From assembly GCA_022072245.1 (NCBI GenBank), contig JAJVIA010000055.1:28521-62676 (forward strand): a DNA stretch of 34,156 bases. Reading direction: 5' to 3'. This DNA comes from Anaerolineae bacterium. Lineage in GTDB: Bacteria > Chloroflexota > Anaerolineae > UBA4142 > SHND01. Both the position numbers and the translations under genes were made by a program. The notes under the pieces were generated by a model. It saw nothing but the letters and a program-made list of their open reading frames with translations. It was not told the DNA's origin and did no database searches. The stretch's first letter is position 1; each line of letters opens with the position of its first letter. Below, in pieces: positions 24,080-32,808 of this stretch.

Positions 24080-24594
24080 AGAGCGAGCCAAACAATAAAG
24101 CGTGGATTTTGGATTTTTGCTTGCGCAACGTTTATCCGCGATTCATTGGCGCAATTATATCATCTGCCGCGCGGGAGCGAAAAAAAACCGCGCGCGCAGG
24201 GCGATTTTTTTTCGGAATGTGGATGCGATGGGGATGGCGCGCGGGTTGTCCACATTTTCTCGCGGGGTATCCACAGTTTAGCGCGAGTTTTCCACACCGC
24301 CAACCTTGACTTGTGCGTGTGCGCCTGTGAATATCCTATAATTAGTGGACGCGATTTTTTTTCCACACGCGCGGGGGCATTTATCCACAAGTCGTAAGCG
24401 TTGACGCCCAACTTAAAGAATTTGCGCGCGCGTGCATCTTTTAAGGTACAACTATTGCGCGCGGCGTGCGCTTTTGCTAAGATAGCGCACGCGTCGCAAT
24501 ACCTTAGCGGCAGCCATTGTTTCTTTGTGGGAGAGAAACAGCGGCTCACGCATTGCGACGTGTATTTTTCGCAATTTTTTTTCAAGGAACTCGT
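24080..24594. other. Candidate chromosomal replication origin (oriC) upstream of dnaA
   Basis: This 515-nt gene-free region contains five DnaA-box-like 9-mers, all on the plus strand: TTGTCCACA (24246), GTATCCACA (24267), TTTTCCACA (24288 and 24359) and the perfect TTATCCACA (24381-24389). An AT-rich segment with TATAATTA and a run of T (24331-24361) lies within the cluster and could be the unwinding element. Its position directly before dnaA and the nearby parAB agree with a bacterial origin. Confidence 0.75.
24455..24483 (+). promoter_or_regulatory. dnaA promoter TTGCGC-17-TAAGAT
   Basis: TTGCGC (24455-24460), a 17-nt spacer and TAAGAT (24478-24483) would start a leader of about 105 nt. 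The upstream DnaA boxes would allow autoregulation. Another TATAAT at 24337-24342 lacks a well-spaced -35. Confidence 0.5.
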
Positions 24595-26112
24595 ATGCTT
24601 TCCACTCAACCGCTTCACCCGGTCCGCGCGTTCGACGGCGCGCGCAAACCGCTCGCGCCCAATGCCGCGCACATTTGGCAAGCTGCGCTGGGCGAGCTGC
24701 AATTGCAAATGACCAAAGCGACGTTTGATACGTGGGTGAAACCGACTTTTGCGCTCGCGTTGGATGCGGAAAAAAATATCCTCGTCGTCGGCGTGCGTAA
24801 TGCGTACGCTAAACAATGGCTTGAAAATCGCTTGTATGGTATGATTGAACGGACGCTCAATCATGTGCTTGGGCAGCCGGCGGAAATCCGTTTTGTTTTG
24901 AAAACGGAACAGGACGCGGAAGACGAAACCGCCGCCGAAGCGTACGATTTCACGTCGCCAAGCGCGCGCGAGACGCCTGCCGCCGTCGCCGAACCGAGCG
25001 TATCGTCGCGTTCGCCTATGAATGACGAGAATCGTTCCCCGCGCCGCGAGAGCGCGGACAGCAATTCATCGGCCTATACGCCGTCGCGCGGGCAAGGTTC
25101 GACGCTGAATCCGAAATATACGTTTGACATGTATATCGTCGGCAATTCAAATCGCCTCGCGCACGCGGCGTGCATGGCGGTGGCGGAACGGCCCGCCGAG
25201 GCGTACAACCCGCTTTTCATTTACGGCGGCACCGGCTTGGGCAAAACGCATCTCTTGCACGCGCTCGGCTGGATTCCGCAATTGCGCGGCAAACAGGTGG
25301 TGTATGTTTCGTCGGAAACGTTCACCAACGAGCTCATCAATTCGATTCGCACCCAAACCGCCGAAGAATTTCGCCGCGCCTATCGCGAAGTGGATGTTTT
25401 GCTGATTGACGACATTCAATTTATCGCGGGCAAAGAAACCACGCAAGAAGAATTTTTCCACACTTTTAATTCGCTGCACGGACTGAATAAACAAATCGTC
25501 ATTTCGGCGGACCGACATCCGCGCGCGATTTCGACGCTGGAAGAGCGCTTGCGTTCGCGTTTTGAAGGCGGCTTGATTGCGGACATTCAACCGCCCGATT
25601 TTGAAACGCGCGCGGCGATTTTGCGTTTCAAAGCCGAAGCCCAGCCGATGGCGGTGCCGTCGGACGTGATTGATTTTCTCTCGCGCAAAATTCAATCCAA
25701 TATCCGCGAATTGAATGGCGCTTTGACGCGCGTCGTCGCGTACGCCCAATTGATGCAGCTGCCGCTGTCGGTGGATTTGGCGCAAACGGTTTTGCAAGAT
25801 GTTTTGCAGCAAACGCCGCTCAGCATGGATCAGGTTTTGACGGCGGTGTGCGAATATTACCGCGTCAGCGTCGAAGAAATCAAAGGACGCGGCCGCAATA
25901 AAGAAGTGGTGACGCCGCGTCAAATGGCAATGTATCTTTTGCGCGAAGCCACCGGCGCGTCGCTTCCGCAAATCGGCGAAACGCTCGGCGGGCGTGACCA
26001 TACGACGGTGATGTATTCGGTGGACAAGATTGCGGAAGAAATCGAACAGGACGACCAGCGCCGCCGCGAAATGCTCGCCATCAAAGAACGGCTATACAAC
26101 GGCAATCGGTAG
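24595..26112 (+). CDS. dnaA: Chromosomal replication initiator DnaA
   Basis: DnaA binds 9-mer boxes and melts the origin. The 505-residue protein has domain I (IWQAALGELQLQMTKATFDTWVKPT, residues 21-45), a variable Ser/Glu-rich linker (about 105-165), and the AAA+ domain from LNPKYTFDMYIVGNSN. Walker A is GGTGLGKT (211-218) and Walker B is VLLIDDIQFIAGKE. The C-terminal HTH contains GRDHTTVMYSVDKI, the box-recognition signature. The ATG at 24595 is preceded by AAGGAAC; an in-frame ATG at 24517 is rejected because homology starts later. Confidence 0.97.
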   Translation: MLSTQPLHPVRAFDGARKPLAPNAAHIWQAALGELQLQMTKATFDTWVKPTFALALDAEKNILVVGVRNAYAKQWLENRLYGMIERTLNHVLGQPAEIRFVLKTEQDAEDETAAEAYDFTSPSARETPAAVAEPSVSSRSPMNDENRSPRRESADSNSSAYTPSRGQGSTLNPKYTFDMYIVGNSNRLAHAACMAVAERPAEAYNPLFIYGGTGLGKTHLLHALGWIPQLRGKQVVYVSSETFTNELINSIRTQTAEEFRRAYREVDVLLIDDIQFIAGKETTQEEFFHTFNSLHGLNKQIVISADRHPRAISTLEERLRSRFEGGLIADIQPPDFETRAAILRFKAEAQPMAVPSDVIDFLSRKIQSNIRELNGALTRVVAYAQLMQLPLSVDLAQTVLQDVLQQTPLSMDQVLTAVCEYYRVSVEEIKGRGRNKEVVTPRQMAMYLLREATGASLPQIGETLGGRDHTTVMYSVDKIAEEIEQDDQRRREMLAIKERLYNGNR

Positions 26113-27696: not shown

Positions 27697-28647
27697 TCAC
27701 TTCAAGTTCTCTCTCACCCGCGCATACAATTCTTCCGCGCGCAATTGTTTCAGCGTGTACACGTTTCCGCCCAATTTTTCTGCCAGCGTCGCGGCGAGAC
27801 CCCGGTCGAACGCTTCGTGTTCGGTGTTGATGACGACGGTGCGAATGTCGTTCTTTTTGAACATGGCGGCGATGCGGTGCGCTTCTTCTTGCGGCGGCAA
27901 ATCGGTCATGGACACATTGCCCGCGCCGTCGGTGACGATGATGGCGAGCGGCATGATTTCGGGGTCGCGGATTTTTTCGCGCACGAGGATTTGATGCGCC
28001 AAGAGCAAGCCCGCGCTGAGCGGCGTCTTGCCGCCGACGGGAACGTCTTTGAGCGCCTTTTGCGCGAGGTCAACCGATGAGGTGGGCGGCAGAACAGTGC
28101 GCGCCTCTTCTTTTTGAAAAACGACGAGCCCCACGCGGTCGCGCTTTTGATACGCGTCCACGAGCAGCGACATGATCGCGCCTTTGGTCGCAATCATGCG
28201 CTCGGCGGCAGCCATGCTCCACGACGCATCCACGACGAACAAGATGCAATTCGCCGCGCGGCGCACGCGCACCTTTTTTCGTAAATCCTGTTTTTCAATC
28301 GCCAGCGCGAGTTCGCTGCCCTCCGCTTTGCGGCGCAGTTGATGCGGCGCGGCGGAGCGAAAGGTCGCGTCGAATGCGACATCATTTATCTCGCCGCGCA
28401 TTTCGCGCGAACGAATGTATCTGCCGCGTTTGCGTTCGGTGCGCGTCCGCGAGCGTTTGCCCGCGGACTTGCGCGCCATTTTATCAATCGGAGTTTGAAG
28501 TTTGCGGGGGGCGAACGCGTCGCCGATATTGACCGGACGGTCGGCGGGATTGGGCGATTGCTTTGAAGGGTCGTGTCCCTGTCCCTGCACCGATTGGTCG
28601 CTCGGCGACGGCGTGTGTTCGGAAGATTGGTCAGAGTTTAGGGACGC
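27697..28647 (-). CDS. chlD: ChlD/BchD-like VWA half, probably made as a ChlI-ChlD fusion by -1 frameshifting
   Basis: This frame has a linker ([16 protein letters not shown]..), a basic [17 protein letters not shown] region and a von Willebrand A domain with MIDAS DASWS, the Thr in GKTPLS and TDGAGN. This is the C-terminal half of a chelatase D subunit, needed for Mg- or Co-chelatase assembly. It has no good start of its own: the GTG at 28590 lacks a ribosome site. The frame is continuous with chlI through a slippery A_AAA_AAG at 28653-28647. A -1 slip would give a fusion of about 676 residues, the usual ChlD length. Confidence 0.8.
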
Positions 28648-29726
28648 TTTTTTTTTACTTCTTGCTTTTGGTCGCCTTTGGGTTGGCCCTCGCTTTGAAC
28701 GCCTTCGCGCGCGCGTTCGAGCTGTTTTTCCAATTGCTCAAAACGCACTTCGACATCCTGGAACGGTTTCCGTTTCAAGCGATGCGGCAGCGCGAGTTCG
28801 GCGGCGAGCAAAATATCTTGCTCATCAATGTTTGTGCGTCCCGCGAGCGCGGCGTGTGCGCGCGCCGCTTTCAAGATGACGAGGTCGGCGCGGTGACCGT
28901 CCACTTCCAAACCCGAAGTCAATTCCGCAATCGCGTAAATGTCCGCGTGAGAATGTTTCACTTCCGGCAAATGTTCGCGCGCATTCTCGATTTCTTTGGA
29001 CAATTTCTTTTCCGCCGTTTGCCATTCTTGATTGAACGCTTCCGGGTCTTGTTCAAAGGCGAGCCGGCGCTCGATGATTTCGACGCGCTGCTCGGCGTCG
29101 GGAATGCCGCGAATGTCCACCGAGAGCCCAAAGCGGTCCAAAAGTTGCGGGCGCAGTTCGCCCTCTTCGGGATTCATCGTGCCGACCAAAACAAATTGCG
29201 CGGGATGTTGAAACGAAATGCCCTCGCGTTCCACATTGTTCACGCCCATCGCGGCGGAATCGAGTAACAAGTCAACGACGTGGTCATCCAAAAGATTCAC
29301 TTCGTCTACATACAAAATGCCGCGATTCGCGTTCGCCAAAACGCCCGGCTCGAATTTTTTCTCGCCGCGTTTGATGGCGGTCTCGATGTCTAAGGTGCCG
29401 ACGACGCGGTCTTCGGTCGCGCTGACGGGCAAATCTACCAGACGGACTTTTCGTCTAGCAATCGGCAGCACTTCGCCGCGCGCTTCGCGCTCCATACACT
29501 CGTCGCACAAATGCGAATCGTGGGGATTGCAGCCAAAGCGGCAGTCGGCGACGATTTCAATTTCGGGCAGCAGCGCGGCAAGGGCGCGCACGGCGGTAGA
29601 TTTTGCCGTGCCGCGTTCGCCGCGAATGAGGACGCCGCCAATCAATGGGTTAATCGCGTTGAGCACCAACGCGCGCTTCATACGGTCTTGACCAACTATG
29701 GCGGTAAAAGGAAAAATCGCGGGCAT
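28638..29726 (-). CDS. chlI: Magnesium/cobalt chelatase ATPase subunit ChlI/BchI-like
   Basis: The 362-residue AAA+ ATPase has Walker [10 protein letters not shown] (residues 36-44), a Cys-rich insertion [34 protein letters not shown], Walker [13 protein letters not shown], and [23 protein letters not shown]. Such subunits power metal insertion into porphyrin or corrin rings together with a large CobN/ChlH subunit, not present here. Without photosynthesis genes in the window a cobalt role is more likely. The zero-frame product ends 3 codons after a run of nine A. A good promoter and an AAGGTG ribosome site precede the ATG. Confidence 0.92.
28647..28653 (-). promoter_or_regulatory. Slippery heptamer A_AAA_AAG in chlI (-1 frameshift site)
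   Basis: The heptamer is in the correct zero-frame register (A|AAA|AAG). A -1 slip continues as GCG TCC CTA AAC into the VWA frame without any stop, while the zero frame ends at TAA 28640-28638. Downstream, GTCCCT (28645-28640) is complementary to two copies of AGGGAC (28586-28581 and 28580-28575), and a small GTCGC/GCGAC hairpin lies at 28597-28609; either could stimulate slippage. Confidence 0.75.
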
Positions 29727-29807: not shown

Positions 29808-29841
29808 AAAAAAATTGCCGCGGCTTAATCGCCGCGGCAAT
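29808..29841 (-). terminator. Intrinsic terminator of the TIGR00027-like methyltransferase gene
   Basis: The 11-bp stem ATTGCCGCGGC/GCCGCGGCAAT (29814-29824, 29831-29841) is followed on the minus strand by seven T. It is 8 nt past the stop. Confidence 0.9.
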
Positions 29842-29848
29842 CTGAAAT

Positions 29849-30931: not shown

Positions 30932-31834
30932 TTAATGCACCAATTTATCGTAAATCGTCTCGAGCTCTTCGTCCGAATAAAACTCGATGATAATTTTTCC
31001 GCCGCGCTGCGAGCGAAACAATTCCACTTTGGTGCCCAACGCGCGCCGTAAAGCTTCTTCAATCGAATGTGTGTCGGGCGACGTATGACGGGTTGGCGTC
31101 TCGCGTTTTTCGTTCGCGCTAGTCTTGGGCCGATGACTAATTGTCATGGCTAGGGTGCGCCGCACGAGCTCTTCGGTTTGACGCACGGATAAATTTTCGT
31201 CCGCAACATGCGCGAGCAATTTTTCTTGTTTCGCCGCATCGGGAATTTGCATCAACGCGCGCGCGTGCCCTTCGCTAATGGATTCGTTCAACACGGCATC
31301 TTTGAGCGCGTCGGGCATTTTCAAAAGCCGCAGCGCGTTGGAAACGGTCGTGCGATCCTTGCCTACTTTTTGCGCGACCTGTTCTTGCGTCAATTCAAAT
31401 TCTTGAATGAGTTGGCGATACGCTTCCGCTTCTTCGAGCGCGTTCAAATCCGCGCGCTGCACATTTTCGACGAGCGCGAGTTCGAGCATTTGCTGCGGCG
31501 TCGCGCCTTTGACAATTGCCGGGACAGAGTGCAAGCCCGCGCGCTGCGCCGCGCGCCACCGCCGTTCGCCCGCAATCAATTGATAACGCGAACCATACGG
31601 CGTTGTGATTTCTCTAAGCACAAGCGGTTGAATCAAGCCGTGTTCGCGGATGGACGCGGCGAGTTCTTCTAGCGCGTCATTCGTGAACCGTTTGCGCGGC
31701 TGATGCGGATTCGGTTCAATCTGCGCGATTTGAATTTGGCGCACGCCGCTGGCGCTCTCATTTTCGGAAATGGTTCGTTGCGGAATCAACGCGCCGAGGC
31801 CGCGTCCGAGTCCGTGTTTGGCGGTTGTCGTCAT
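30932..31834 (-). CDS. parB: Chromosome partitioning protein ParB
   Basis: ParB binds parS and, as a CTP-dependent clamp, loads condensin at the origin. The 300-residue protein starts GLGRGLGALIP. It continues with the N-terminal domain PNPHQPRKRF...IREHGLIQPL, the CTP-binding GERRWRA and ENVQR motifs, the HTH region (LTQEQVAQKVGKDRTTVSNALRLLKMP) and a C-terminal dimerisation segment. The ATG at 31834 overlaps the parA stop (ATGA) and has GGAG 5 nt before it, so the genes are translationally coupled. Confidence 0.96.
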   Translation of the reverse strand: MTTTAKHGLGRGLGALIPQRTISENESASGVRQIQIAQIEPNPHQPRKRFTNDALEELAASIREHGLIQPLVLREITTPYGSRYQLIAGERRWRAAQRAGLHSVPAIVKGATPQQMLELALVENVQRADLNALEEAEAYRQLIQEFELTQEQVAQKVGKDRTTVSNALRLLKMPDALKDAVLNESISEGHARALMQIPDAAKQEKLLAHVADENLSVRQTEELVRRTLAMTISHRPKTSANEKRETPTRHTSPDTHSIEEALRRALGTKVELFRSQRGGKIIIEFYSDEELETIYDKLVH

Positions 31835-32808
31835 AGTTTCTCCAAAGAGTAGCAAGTAGTAGGCGGCAGGGAATTTGCCTCAGTCTGTAGAGTTTCAGTT
31901 CCCTGATACGTGCTACCTGCTACGAATCTTGCTTCCCGCATCAAAAATTCATTTGTCAATTTTTCGTACGCCTCCGCGCCGCGCGAGTGAATGTCGAATT
32001 TTACCAAGGGTTCGCCAAAGCTGGGCGCTTCGGCGACGCGCACATTGCGCGGGATGTAGGTTTCAAAAACTTGGTCCGGGAAATGCGTTCGCACTTCTTG
32101 CATCACTTGGGCGCCGAGACGCGCGCGCGGGTCAAACATGGTCATTACCAAGCCAAACAATTCCAAACGCGGATTTAAATTTTCGCGCACGAGCGCGATA
32201 GTTTGCATCAACTGCGCGAGCCCTTCGAGCGCGAGATATTCGCACTGCACCGGTACGACGACGTAATCGGCAGCGCACAACGCGTTGACCGTGAGAATTC
32301 CGAGCGACGGCGGACAGTCAATCAGGATGTGGTCAAATGCGGAACGAAGCGACGGAAAGGAATGTGACGTGGAACGCTGCGGCGAATCGGAACGCTGCGG
32401 CGAATCGGAACGCTGCGGCGAATCGGAACGCTGCGGCGAGCGTTCCGTACTGTAGCCCTCGCTCGCCGCAGCGAGGGCATCGCGCAGGATGAATTCGCGA
32501 TGGGGCGCGTTCGCCAATTCGATTTCGGCGCCCGCGAGCATGGACGTCGCAGGCGCAACGCAGAGACGCTCAATCGTGGTCGCGGTGAAAATTTCACGCA
32601 GCGCGATGCCGCCGACGAAAACGTCATACACGGACGCGGACAGCGCAAAGCGGTCAATGCCGAGACTCGCCGTCGCGTTGCCTTGCGGGTCGAGGTCAAT
32701 CAACAGCACGCGCCGACCTTGCCACGCGAGGAATGCGCCGATATTGACGGCGGTGGTAGTTTTTCCGACGCCGCCTTTTTGATTGGCAAACGTATATATT
32801 GTGCCCAT
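31831..32808 (-). CDS. parA: Chromosome partitioning ATPase ParA (Soj) with in-frame repeat insertion and extended C-terminus
   Basis: ParA is the Walker ATPase that moves ParB-parS complexes. The 325-residue protein has the deviant Walker A KGGVGKTTT (residues 11-19), LIDLDPQGNAT and DHILIDCPPSLG (159-170). It is about 70 residues longer than usual. Residues about 113-158 are translated from tandem 18-nt repeats and two palindromes, giving SPQRSD repeats between LRDAL and DHILIDC. Residues about 296-325 come from an imperfect 25-bp inverted repeat (31849-31923). Both regions would be surface loops or tails if the ATPase is active. Promoter at 32849-32877. Confidence 0.94.
   Translation of the reverse strand: MGTIYTFANQKGGVGKTTTAVNIGAFLAWQGRRVLLIDLDPQGNATASLGIDRFALSASVYDVFVGGIALREIFTATTIERLCVAPATSMLAGAEIELANAPHREFILRDALAAASEGYSTERSPQRSDSPQRSDSPQRSDSPQRSTSHSFPSLRSAFDHILIDCPPSLGILTVNALCAADYVVVPVQCEYLALEGLAQLMQTIALVRENLNPRLELFGLVMTMFDPRARLGAQVMQEVRTHFPDQVFETYIPRNVRVAEAPSFGEPLVKFDIHSRGAEAYEKLTNEFLMREARFVAGSTYQGTETLQTEANSLPPTTCYSLEKL
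31849..31923. repeat. Imperfect inverted repeat encoding the ParA C-terminus
   Basis: The arms at 31849-31873 and 31899-31923 match at 19 of 25 positions (outer ends GTAGCA, inner ends CAGGGAA). The element lies over the end of parA and the ribosome site of parB, so it adds about 30 residues to ParA while supplying the GGAG of parB. Confidence 0.65.
32371..32478. repeat. Tandem and palindromic repeat inside parA
   Basis: GGAACGCTGCGGCGAATC is repeated at 32371, 32389 and 32407 and begins again at 32425. The last copy turns into a palindrome (GGAACGCT-GCGGCG-AGCGTTCC, 32425-32446). A second palindrome, GCCCTCGCT-CGCCGC-AGCGAGGGC (32455-32478), follows. All are in frame with parA. Confidence 0.88.

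What the first reader, a model, noticed from the sequence alone, without database searches (positions are those of the whole stretch)
27697..29726. Probable programmed -1 frameshift fusing ChlI to a ChlD-like VWA domain
Zero-frame translation makes a complete ChlI ATPase ending 3 codons after nine consecutive A. An in-register A_AAA_AAG (28653-28647) allows a -1 slip into a stop-free frame that runs through a proline-rich linker into the VWA domain. The product would be about 676 residues, the normal ChlD length. The VWA frame has no convincing start of its own. One gene would thus supply both the small and the medium chelatase subunit. Frameshifting in chlD-type genes has been reported for cobalt chelatases, so this may be a further case with its own stimulators (GTCCCT/AGGGAC pairing).
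Basis: partly seen in the sequence, partly recalled or inferred. Interest (0 to 1): 0.8.

Follow-up and report, generated by a model that had tools for sequence, protein, structure and literature searches.

The report
Two-protein chelatase-like gene, conserved slip
One bacterial gene carries a conserved run of nine A's where the reading frame can slip, so that it can make both a short ATPase and a longer version with an added domain; such genes are already known, but many related genes that look unbroken keep the same slip site, which suggests that the trick is more widespread than gene annotation shows.

Summary
Confirmed. In an Anaerolineae (Chloroflexota) genome a ChlI-type ATPase frame (362 aa) ends just after nine A's, and the -1 frame runs on into a VWA domain (fusion 676 aa). 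It is not a sequencing error: 18 of 18 loci of the order that span the junction have exactly GT-A9-GC and a zero-frame stop 7 nt later. It is a frameshifted chlD gene, a kind already described, also in Chloroflexi.

The GTCCCT/AGGGAC helix is not a conserved stimulator (fold z -0.16), and "chelatase" is doubtful: 0 of 20 order genomes have a large subunit or CbiC.

New here: in 151 class loci the A-run persists whether the VWA domain lies in -1 (115; 114 with A>=7) or in the same frame (34; 27 with A>=7). In those 27 the -1 frame stops within 9 codons in 26 (17.8% at background positions). Eight of eight fused genes of one family outside the class agree. Such unbroken genes probably make the short ATPase by slipping, as dnaX does. 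A9 occurs in all three codon phases and the window's order lacks a stimulator, so RNA-polymerase slippage is at least as likely here as ribosomal frameshifting. Nothing was tested at RNA or protein level.

The parts
28638..29726 (-). zero-frame ORF: ChlI-type AAA+ ATPase, 362 aa, ends E-V-K-K-K-R-P-stop; Walker A (GERGTAKST) and Walker B (ILYVDE) intact by eye
28648..28656 (-). run of nine A's, the slip site; exactly nine in 18 of 18 order loci
28650..28656 (-). in-register heptamer A_AAA_AAA
28647..28653 (-). in-register heptamer A_AAA_AAG
28638..28640 (-). zero-frame stop TAA, 7 nt after the run
27697..28647 (-). -1 frame from the slip: proline-rich linker and VWA domain (MIDAS DASWS by eye), 316 codons plus stop
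28640..28645 (-).
28581..28586 (-). AGGGAC, 3' arm of the same proposed helix
29767..29794 (-). promoter-like TTGCCC-16-TATAAT in front of the gene (consensus match only)
29812..29843 (-). terminator-like hairpin upstream, so the gene may have its own transcript (consensus match only; terminator-like sites in the region are no more frequent than in shuffles)

Best explanation
A frameshifted chlD gene (chlID) decoded in two ways at a selected run of A's. Unslipped decoding gives the AAA+ subunit I (362 aa); a net -1 slip gives the fusion ID (676 aa), I plus linker plus VWA domain. I and ID share their ATPase part and presumably assemble into one ring-type complex (inference). The conserved element is the A-run; the frame in which the VWA domain lies changes among relatives, and many same-frame relatives keep the run and should make I by slipping, like E. 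coli and Thermus dnaX. In the window's order the slip step is at least as likely to be RNA-polymerase slippage on A9 as ribosomal -1 frameshifting (my odds: mainly polymerase 0.45, mainly ribosome 0.35, both 0.2). Since the order shows no large chelatase subunit, the pair more likely works as an ATPase/VWA remodelling machine of unknown substrate than as a metal chelatase (inference, about 0.7).
For: Slip site and frames. Conservation: 18 of 18 order loci; in 151 class loci (the 150 best-matching rows listed, of 269 genomes with a match, plus L013) 115 are -1, 34 fused, 2 '+1'; A>=7 at the junction in 114, 27 and 2 of them. Fused loci: -1 stop within 9 codons in 26 of 27 against 17.8% of 1160 background positions; 8 of 8 listed genomes of family f70 outside the class are fused, with A9 and a -1 stop one codon after the run. 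Tree of 150 rows: frame class changes at least 15 times, run presence 4. For polymerase slippage: A9 in phases 1/2/3 in 17/27/42 of the -1 loci, at least 13 phase changes on the tree; the ninth A is a GTA valine codon in 18 of 18 while GTA is 34 of 961 valine codons elsewhere in these genes; order mean fold z -0.14, control -0.42; +1 frame also closed within 10 codons in 98% of 42 phase-3 A9 loci, background 25%; a same-genus genome has tRNA-Lys UUU and CUU, the condition noted for Thermus in PMC5009743 (passages). Precedent: reporter cassettes of chelatase genes gave 63, 40 and 10% with 11, 9 and 7 A's in E. coli, read at protein level (PMC3711429 section 24).
Against: No RNA or protein data. 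One -1 locus (L163) has no run (it also has an in-frame TAA in the I match); L333, a class member outside the 151, is '+1' without a run. 7 of 34 fused class loci lack a run of A>=7 (six have none of 6 or more, L142 has A6), and their genomes show no second strong I match, so a separate I may be dispensable there. 20 of the 29 fused loci fetched outside the class have no A-run and one has only a G7 run. Class-wide there is somewhat more downstream structure than at control positions (mean z -0.98 against -0.25 in 114 -1 loci), which favours ribosomal frameshifting in part of the class.
Confidence: 0.85

Rival explanations
1. Purely ribosomal -1 frameshifting at A_AAA_AAA or A_AAA_AAG, as the first reader and the chlD literature hold; the extra A's only raise efficiency.
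For: Both heptamers are in register. A7 runs occur only in the phase that makes A_AAA_AAA: 20 of 20 in -1 and 9 of 9 in fused class loci, 6 of 6 in family f80 outside the class; A7 is short for polymerase slippage. A7 -1 loci have strong downstream folds (mean z -2.67, control -0.24, n 20). PMC5009743 (passages) treats magnesium chelatase genes as ribosomal.
Against: In the window's order no stimulator shows and A9 is held beyond the heptamer; A9 is held in every phase; no -1 class locus of the 115 uses the minimal six-A form. The A7-structure link is confounded with descent: only 3 supported independent pairs, going the same way 0.7 and the other way 0.7 on average.
Confidence: 0.35
2. Two separate genes with translational coupling or internal initiation of a VWA protein.
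For: GTG at +57/60 in 10 of 18 order loci, ATG at +246/249 in 17 of 18; the ORF listing gives a 297-aa ORF from GTG.
Against: No start shared by all 18 before the block conserved in the -1 frame; this would not explain A9 kept in 18 of 18, nor 34 fused class loci.
Confidence: 0.03
3. Sequencing or assembly error, or a decaying pseudogene.
For: A homopolymer is the usual place for such errors; all genomes compared here are draft or metagenome-type assemblies of unknown read quality, and a lone A10 fused or '+1' locus (for example L040, L188) may be an error.
Against: Identical GT-A9-GC and stop distance in 18 of 18 order loci from different assemblies; 114 of 115 -1 loci with A>=7; both halves conserved.
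Confidence: 0.02
4. The pair is a working cobalt or magnesium chelatase whose large subunit was missed.
For: 34 of 298 class genomes do have a PF02514 large subunit.
Against: 0 of 20 order genomes, 10 of them at least 90% complete and at most 5% contaminated, have PF02514 or CbiC; positive controls rang in 5 and 7 of 14 genomes; the window genome itself is 79.75% complete.
Confidence: 0.1

Closest known systems
fs-chlD genes (Antonov 2013, PMC3711429; Kuznetsov 2022, PMC9227772; Antonov 2020, not held, recalled)
   Same: ChlI-type frame ending after an A-run, VWA part in -1; reported in Pseudomonas, Burkholderia, Delftia, Herpetosiphon, Methanocaldococcus, Methanococcus and, without B12/chlorophyll pathways or large subunit, in the Chloroflexi Brevefilum fermentans ('stage 1'). 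Anaerolinea thermophila and relatives also have fs-chlD but with a separate chlI.
   Different: The window's order shows no conserved downstream stimulator and holds A9 exactly; in the texts read, unbroken chlD genes are treated as lacking the signal, whereas here 27 of 34 fused class genes and 8 of 8 in family f70 keep it.
Thermus thermophilus dnaX (RNA-polymerase slippage; PMC1088944 and PMC5009743)
   Same: Nine A's, nearby stops in the off frames, long and short form from one gene; two lysine tRNAs in a same-genus genome.
   Different: In Thermus the long product is encoded in one frame; in the window the short one is. Heterogeneous mRNA is shown for Thermus, not here.
E. coli dnaX (ribosomal -1 frameshifting)
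   Same: A_AAA_AAG and, in the fused relatives, a -1 stop within a few codons.
   Different: E. coli dnaX has stem-loop and Shine-Dalgarno stimulators (PMC5009743, passages); the window shows no conserved equivalent.
MoxR/RavA-type AAA+ with VWA partner proteins (recalled, not tested)
   Same: AAA+ ATPase plus VWA protein without a chelatase large subunit.
   Different: The window protein matches chelatase models (TIGR02442), not MoxR.

Membership tests
fs-chlD (frameshifted chlD) | I half and VWA half of one chlD-type protein in two overlapping frames | tested here: met
   TIGR02442 1-351 and 381-640 of 641; frames
fs-chlD (frameshifted chlD) | slippery A-rich heptamer conserved at the overlap | tested here: met
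   18 of 18 order loci; 114 of 115 -1 class loci with A>=7
fs-chlD (frameshifted chlD) | no separate small-subunit gene needed | tested here: met
   one match at E<=1e-60 in each of the 18 order genomes with a match listed; further own-genome matches are weak (31% identity or less)
fs-chlD (frameshifted chlD) | downstream stimulatory RNA structure ('usually', PMC9227772) | tested here: not met
   window z -0.16; order mean z -0.14 against control -0.42, 3 of 18 below -1.5; the feature is usual, not required
fs-chlD (frameshifted chlD) | both products made | not testable with these tools
   needs protein or RNA data
cobalt or magnesium chelatase small and medium subunits | large subunit CobN/ChlH in the genome | tested here: not met
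   PF02514 0 of 20 order genomes; 34 of 298 in the class at E<=1e-20
cobalt or magnesium chelatase small and medium subunits | corrin-ring pathway (CbiC/CobH as marker) | tested here: not met
   PF02570 0 of 20 order genomes; one marker only
transcriptional slippage of the Thermus dnaX type | run of nine A's conserved in length | tested here: met
   exactly nine in 18 of 18 order loci; 86 of 115 -1 class loci
transcriptional slippage of the Thermus dnaX type | early stop in the frame that gives neither product | tested here: met
   +1 stop within 10 codons in 98% of 42 phase-3 A9 -1 loci, background 25%; A7 -1 loci also 70%, so the feature is not specific
transcriptional slippage of the Thermus dnaX type | mRNA heterogeneous in A number | not testable with these tools
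   no RNA data

The most novel reading that the evidence does not exclude
In Chloroflexota the chlID gene holds a length-selected A-run through repeated flips of the genomic frame: sometimes the short subunit, sometimes the long one is encoded directly and the other made by slipping, so that genes annotated as intact are recoded too. In A9 lineages the slip is made by RNA polymerase, in A7 lineages by the ribosome with an RNA hairpin, and in most of the class the pair serves a large-subunit-free ATPase/VWA machine instead of a chelatase.
Probability: 0.35. Interest if true: 0.7.

Novelty: new member of a known kind. Interest (0 to 1): 0.5.

Why it matters
The gene itself is one more fs-chlD. 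What would matter is the class-wide pattern: a slip site kept while the frame it serves keeps changing, with hidden recoding in apparently intact genes that no frameshift scan would flag, and a natural series (A7, A8, A9, A10; -1, 0, +1) in one gene for asking when polymerase slippage replaces ribosomal frameshifting. It also sharpens an open question of PMC9227772: what I and ID do without a chelatase large subunit, since the gene is in 269 of 298 class genomes and a large subunit in 34 of 298.

Tried and rejected
Stimulatory helix GTCCCT/AGGGAC: rejected as conserved. RNAalifold over the junction found only three pairs, without compensatory changes. Shine-Dalgarno-like stimulator: weak at best (match of 4 or more in 52% of 86 A9 -1 loci against 36% of background windows; 89% of the 9 fused A7 loci, which are mostly one genus). 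Link of A7 to structured RNA: strong in raw means, not supported by independent pairs on the tree. Operon clues: flanking ORFs of 80 loci, window included, were clustered; no cluster was in more than 9 loci, so no functional partner was found. A DNA pattern for tRNA-Lys gave matches that do not look like tRNAs, with as many or more for the reversed control; replaced by Rfam plus ARAGORN on one same-genus genome. Internal initiation of a VWA protein: no fully shared start. The tree is a quick one with 43 of 146 inner branches open, so its counts of changes are approximate. No structure prediction was run. Claims that fused chlD genes with a kept slip site are not in print rest on searches and on the texts read; Antonov 2020 was not held and may cover part of it.

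Full report
What is there. On the minus strand of the window (G000:C10, a genome of 79.75% completeness) an ORF from ATG 29726 to TAA 28638 encodes a 362-aa ChlI-type AAA+ ATPase. Its last codons are GTA AAA AAA AAG CGT CCC TAA. The -1 frame is open from the end of the A-run to 27697 and encodes a proline-rich linker and a VWA domain, 316 codons. Both halves belong to one protein model, TIGR02442, putative cobaltochelatase; each half alone is below that model's curated cut-off.

Is it real. In the order, 20 genomes were searched: 19 match, 18 loci span the junction, one is cut before it. All 18 have exactly GT-A9-GC and a zero-frame stop 7 nt after the run, although flanking sequence varies and I proteins range from 79 to 97% identity to the window. 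GTA is 34 of 961 valine codons elsewhere in these genes, yet GTA is used here in 18 of 18, so the ninth A is held although the heptamers do not need it. Error and pseudogene readings are excluded for practical purposes.

Wider sample. In one search, 269 of 298 class genomes had a match at E<=1e-60; the 150 best rows were listed. I analysed these 150 plus L013, so the sample leans to the nearer relatives. Of 151 loci 115 have the VWA part in -1, 34 in the same frame, 2 in +1. A>=7 at the junction: 114, 27 and 2 of these. Run lengths in -1: A7 20, A8 5, A9 86, A10 2, A12 1, none 1. Run lengths in fused: A7 9, A8 1, A9 13, A10 4, A6 1, none 6. The 80 named loci (Anaerolineae and other Chloroflexota records, partly the same genomes; one titled Halieaceae, L092) gave the same picture. 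A set-aside fact: L333, a class member fetched later and not among the 151, is '+1' without a run.

Fused genes keep the slip site. Of the 27 fused class loci with A>=7, 26 have a -1 stop within 9 codons; at 1160 background positions of the same genes 17.8% do (recount). Four genomes of one family (f25) are fused, with A9 followed at once by a TGA in the -1 frame (L034, L036, L038, L127). Outside the class 37 loci were fetched (plus 3 class members): 8 of 8 listed genomes of family f70 are fused, with A9 and a -1 stop one codon on; 6 of 6 of family f80 are -1 with A7; 2 more are -1 with A9 and A10; 20 fused loci have no A-run and one only G7. Several of those families show a second strong I match close by, as expected if a separate small-subunit gene makes slipping needless; but the 7 fused class loci without A>=7 show only one match per genome, against that simple rule. 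On a quick tree of 150 I-part rows the frame class changes at least 15 times and run presence 4 times; many forks are weakly supported.

How the slip works. Two mechanisms fit and would give the same fusion protein. For the ribosome: in-register heptamers; A7 runs only in the heptamer phase (29 of 29 class loci); strong downstream folds in A7 -1 loci (mean z -2.67, n 20) and more structure than control over all 114 -1 loci (-0.98 against -0.25). For polymerase: A9 in all three codon phases (17, 27, 42), at least 13 phase changes; no fold signal in phase-3 A9 loci (-0.23 against -0.26, n 42) or in the order (-0.14 against -0.42); early stops in the frame that serves neither product. The +1 closure is also seen in 70% of A7 -1 loci, so it discriminates little. 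A same-genus genome (98% complete) has tRNA-Lys with UUU and with CUU, which PMC5009743 offers as a reason for polymerase slippage in Thermus. PMC1088944 (Discussion) states that a run of nine A's of conserved length among homologues very likely serves transcriptional slippage. PMC3711429 reports 63, 40 and 10% shifting for chelatase cassettes with 11, 9 and 7 A's in E. coli; from the method described the assay reads protein, so it would not separate the two mechanisms. The A7-structure contrast did not hold up on independent pairs. I therefore give polymerase 0.45, ribosome 0.35, both 0.2 for the window.

What the products do. No PF02514 large subunit and no CbiC in 20 of 20 order genomes; in the class 34 of 298 have a large subunit while 269 of 298 have the gene. 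No conserved neighbour was found. Promoter- and terminator-like sequences suggest a transcript of its own, as consensus matches only. The Walker and MIDAS motifs look intact (by eye, motifs recalled). The likeliest role is an ATPase ring with a VWA adaptor acting on an unknown substrate; this is inference.

Comparison. The gene is an fs-chlD. PMC9227772 describes the same kind, without B12 or chlorophyll pathway, in the Chloroflexi Brevefilum fermentans, and calls its function unknown. The frame reversal is known for dnaX (PMC5009743, passages). For chlD I found no report of a kept slip site in unbroken genes, or of polymerase slippage, in the texts I read; Antonov 2020 was not available. Hence: new member of a known kind, with a class-wide pattern that may be a new variant.

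Noticed in passing
L034, L036, L038, L127; L297-L303, L305: Unbroken chlID genes with A9 and a -1 stop within a few codons: probable hidden recoding that makes the short subunit.
   Followed up: yes
L040 against L044 and L155 (same genus): A10 instead of A9 at the same place puts the VWA part in frame: a one-base change in the run flips which product is encoded directly (or is an assembly error).
   Followed up: partly
L188 (A11), L207 (A10): VWA part in the +1 frame behind a longer run.
   Followed up: partly
L333: Class member with the VWA part in +1 and no homopolymer run at the junction; unexplained.
   Followed up: no
L163: -1 locus without a slip run and with an in-frame TAA in the I match: pseudogene or assembly error.
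   Followed up: no
L332: Fused gene with G7 in place of an A-run in the linker.
   Followed up: no
window 24517-26112 (+), 30932-32808 (-): dnaA and a parA/parB pair flank the gene within a few kb, so the window may lie near the replication origin.
   Followed up: no
L092: A record titled Halieaceae (Gammaproteobacteria) carries an Anaerolineae-like chlID: transfer or a mis-binned contig.
   Followed up: no
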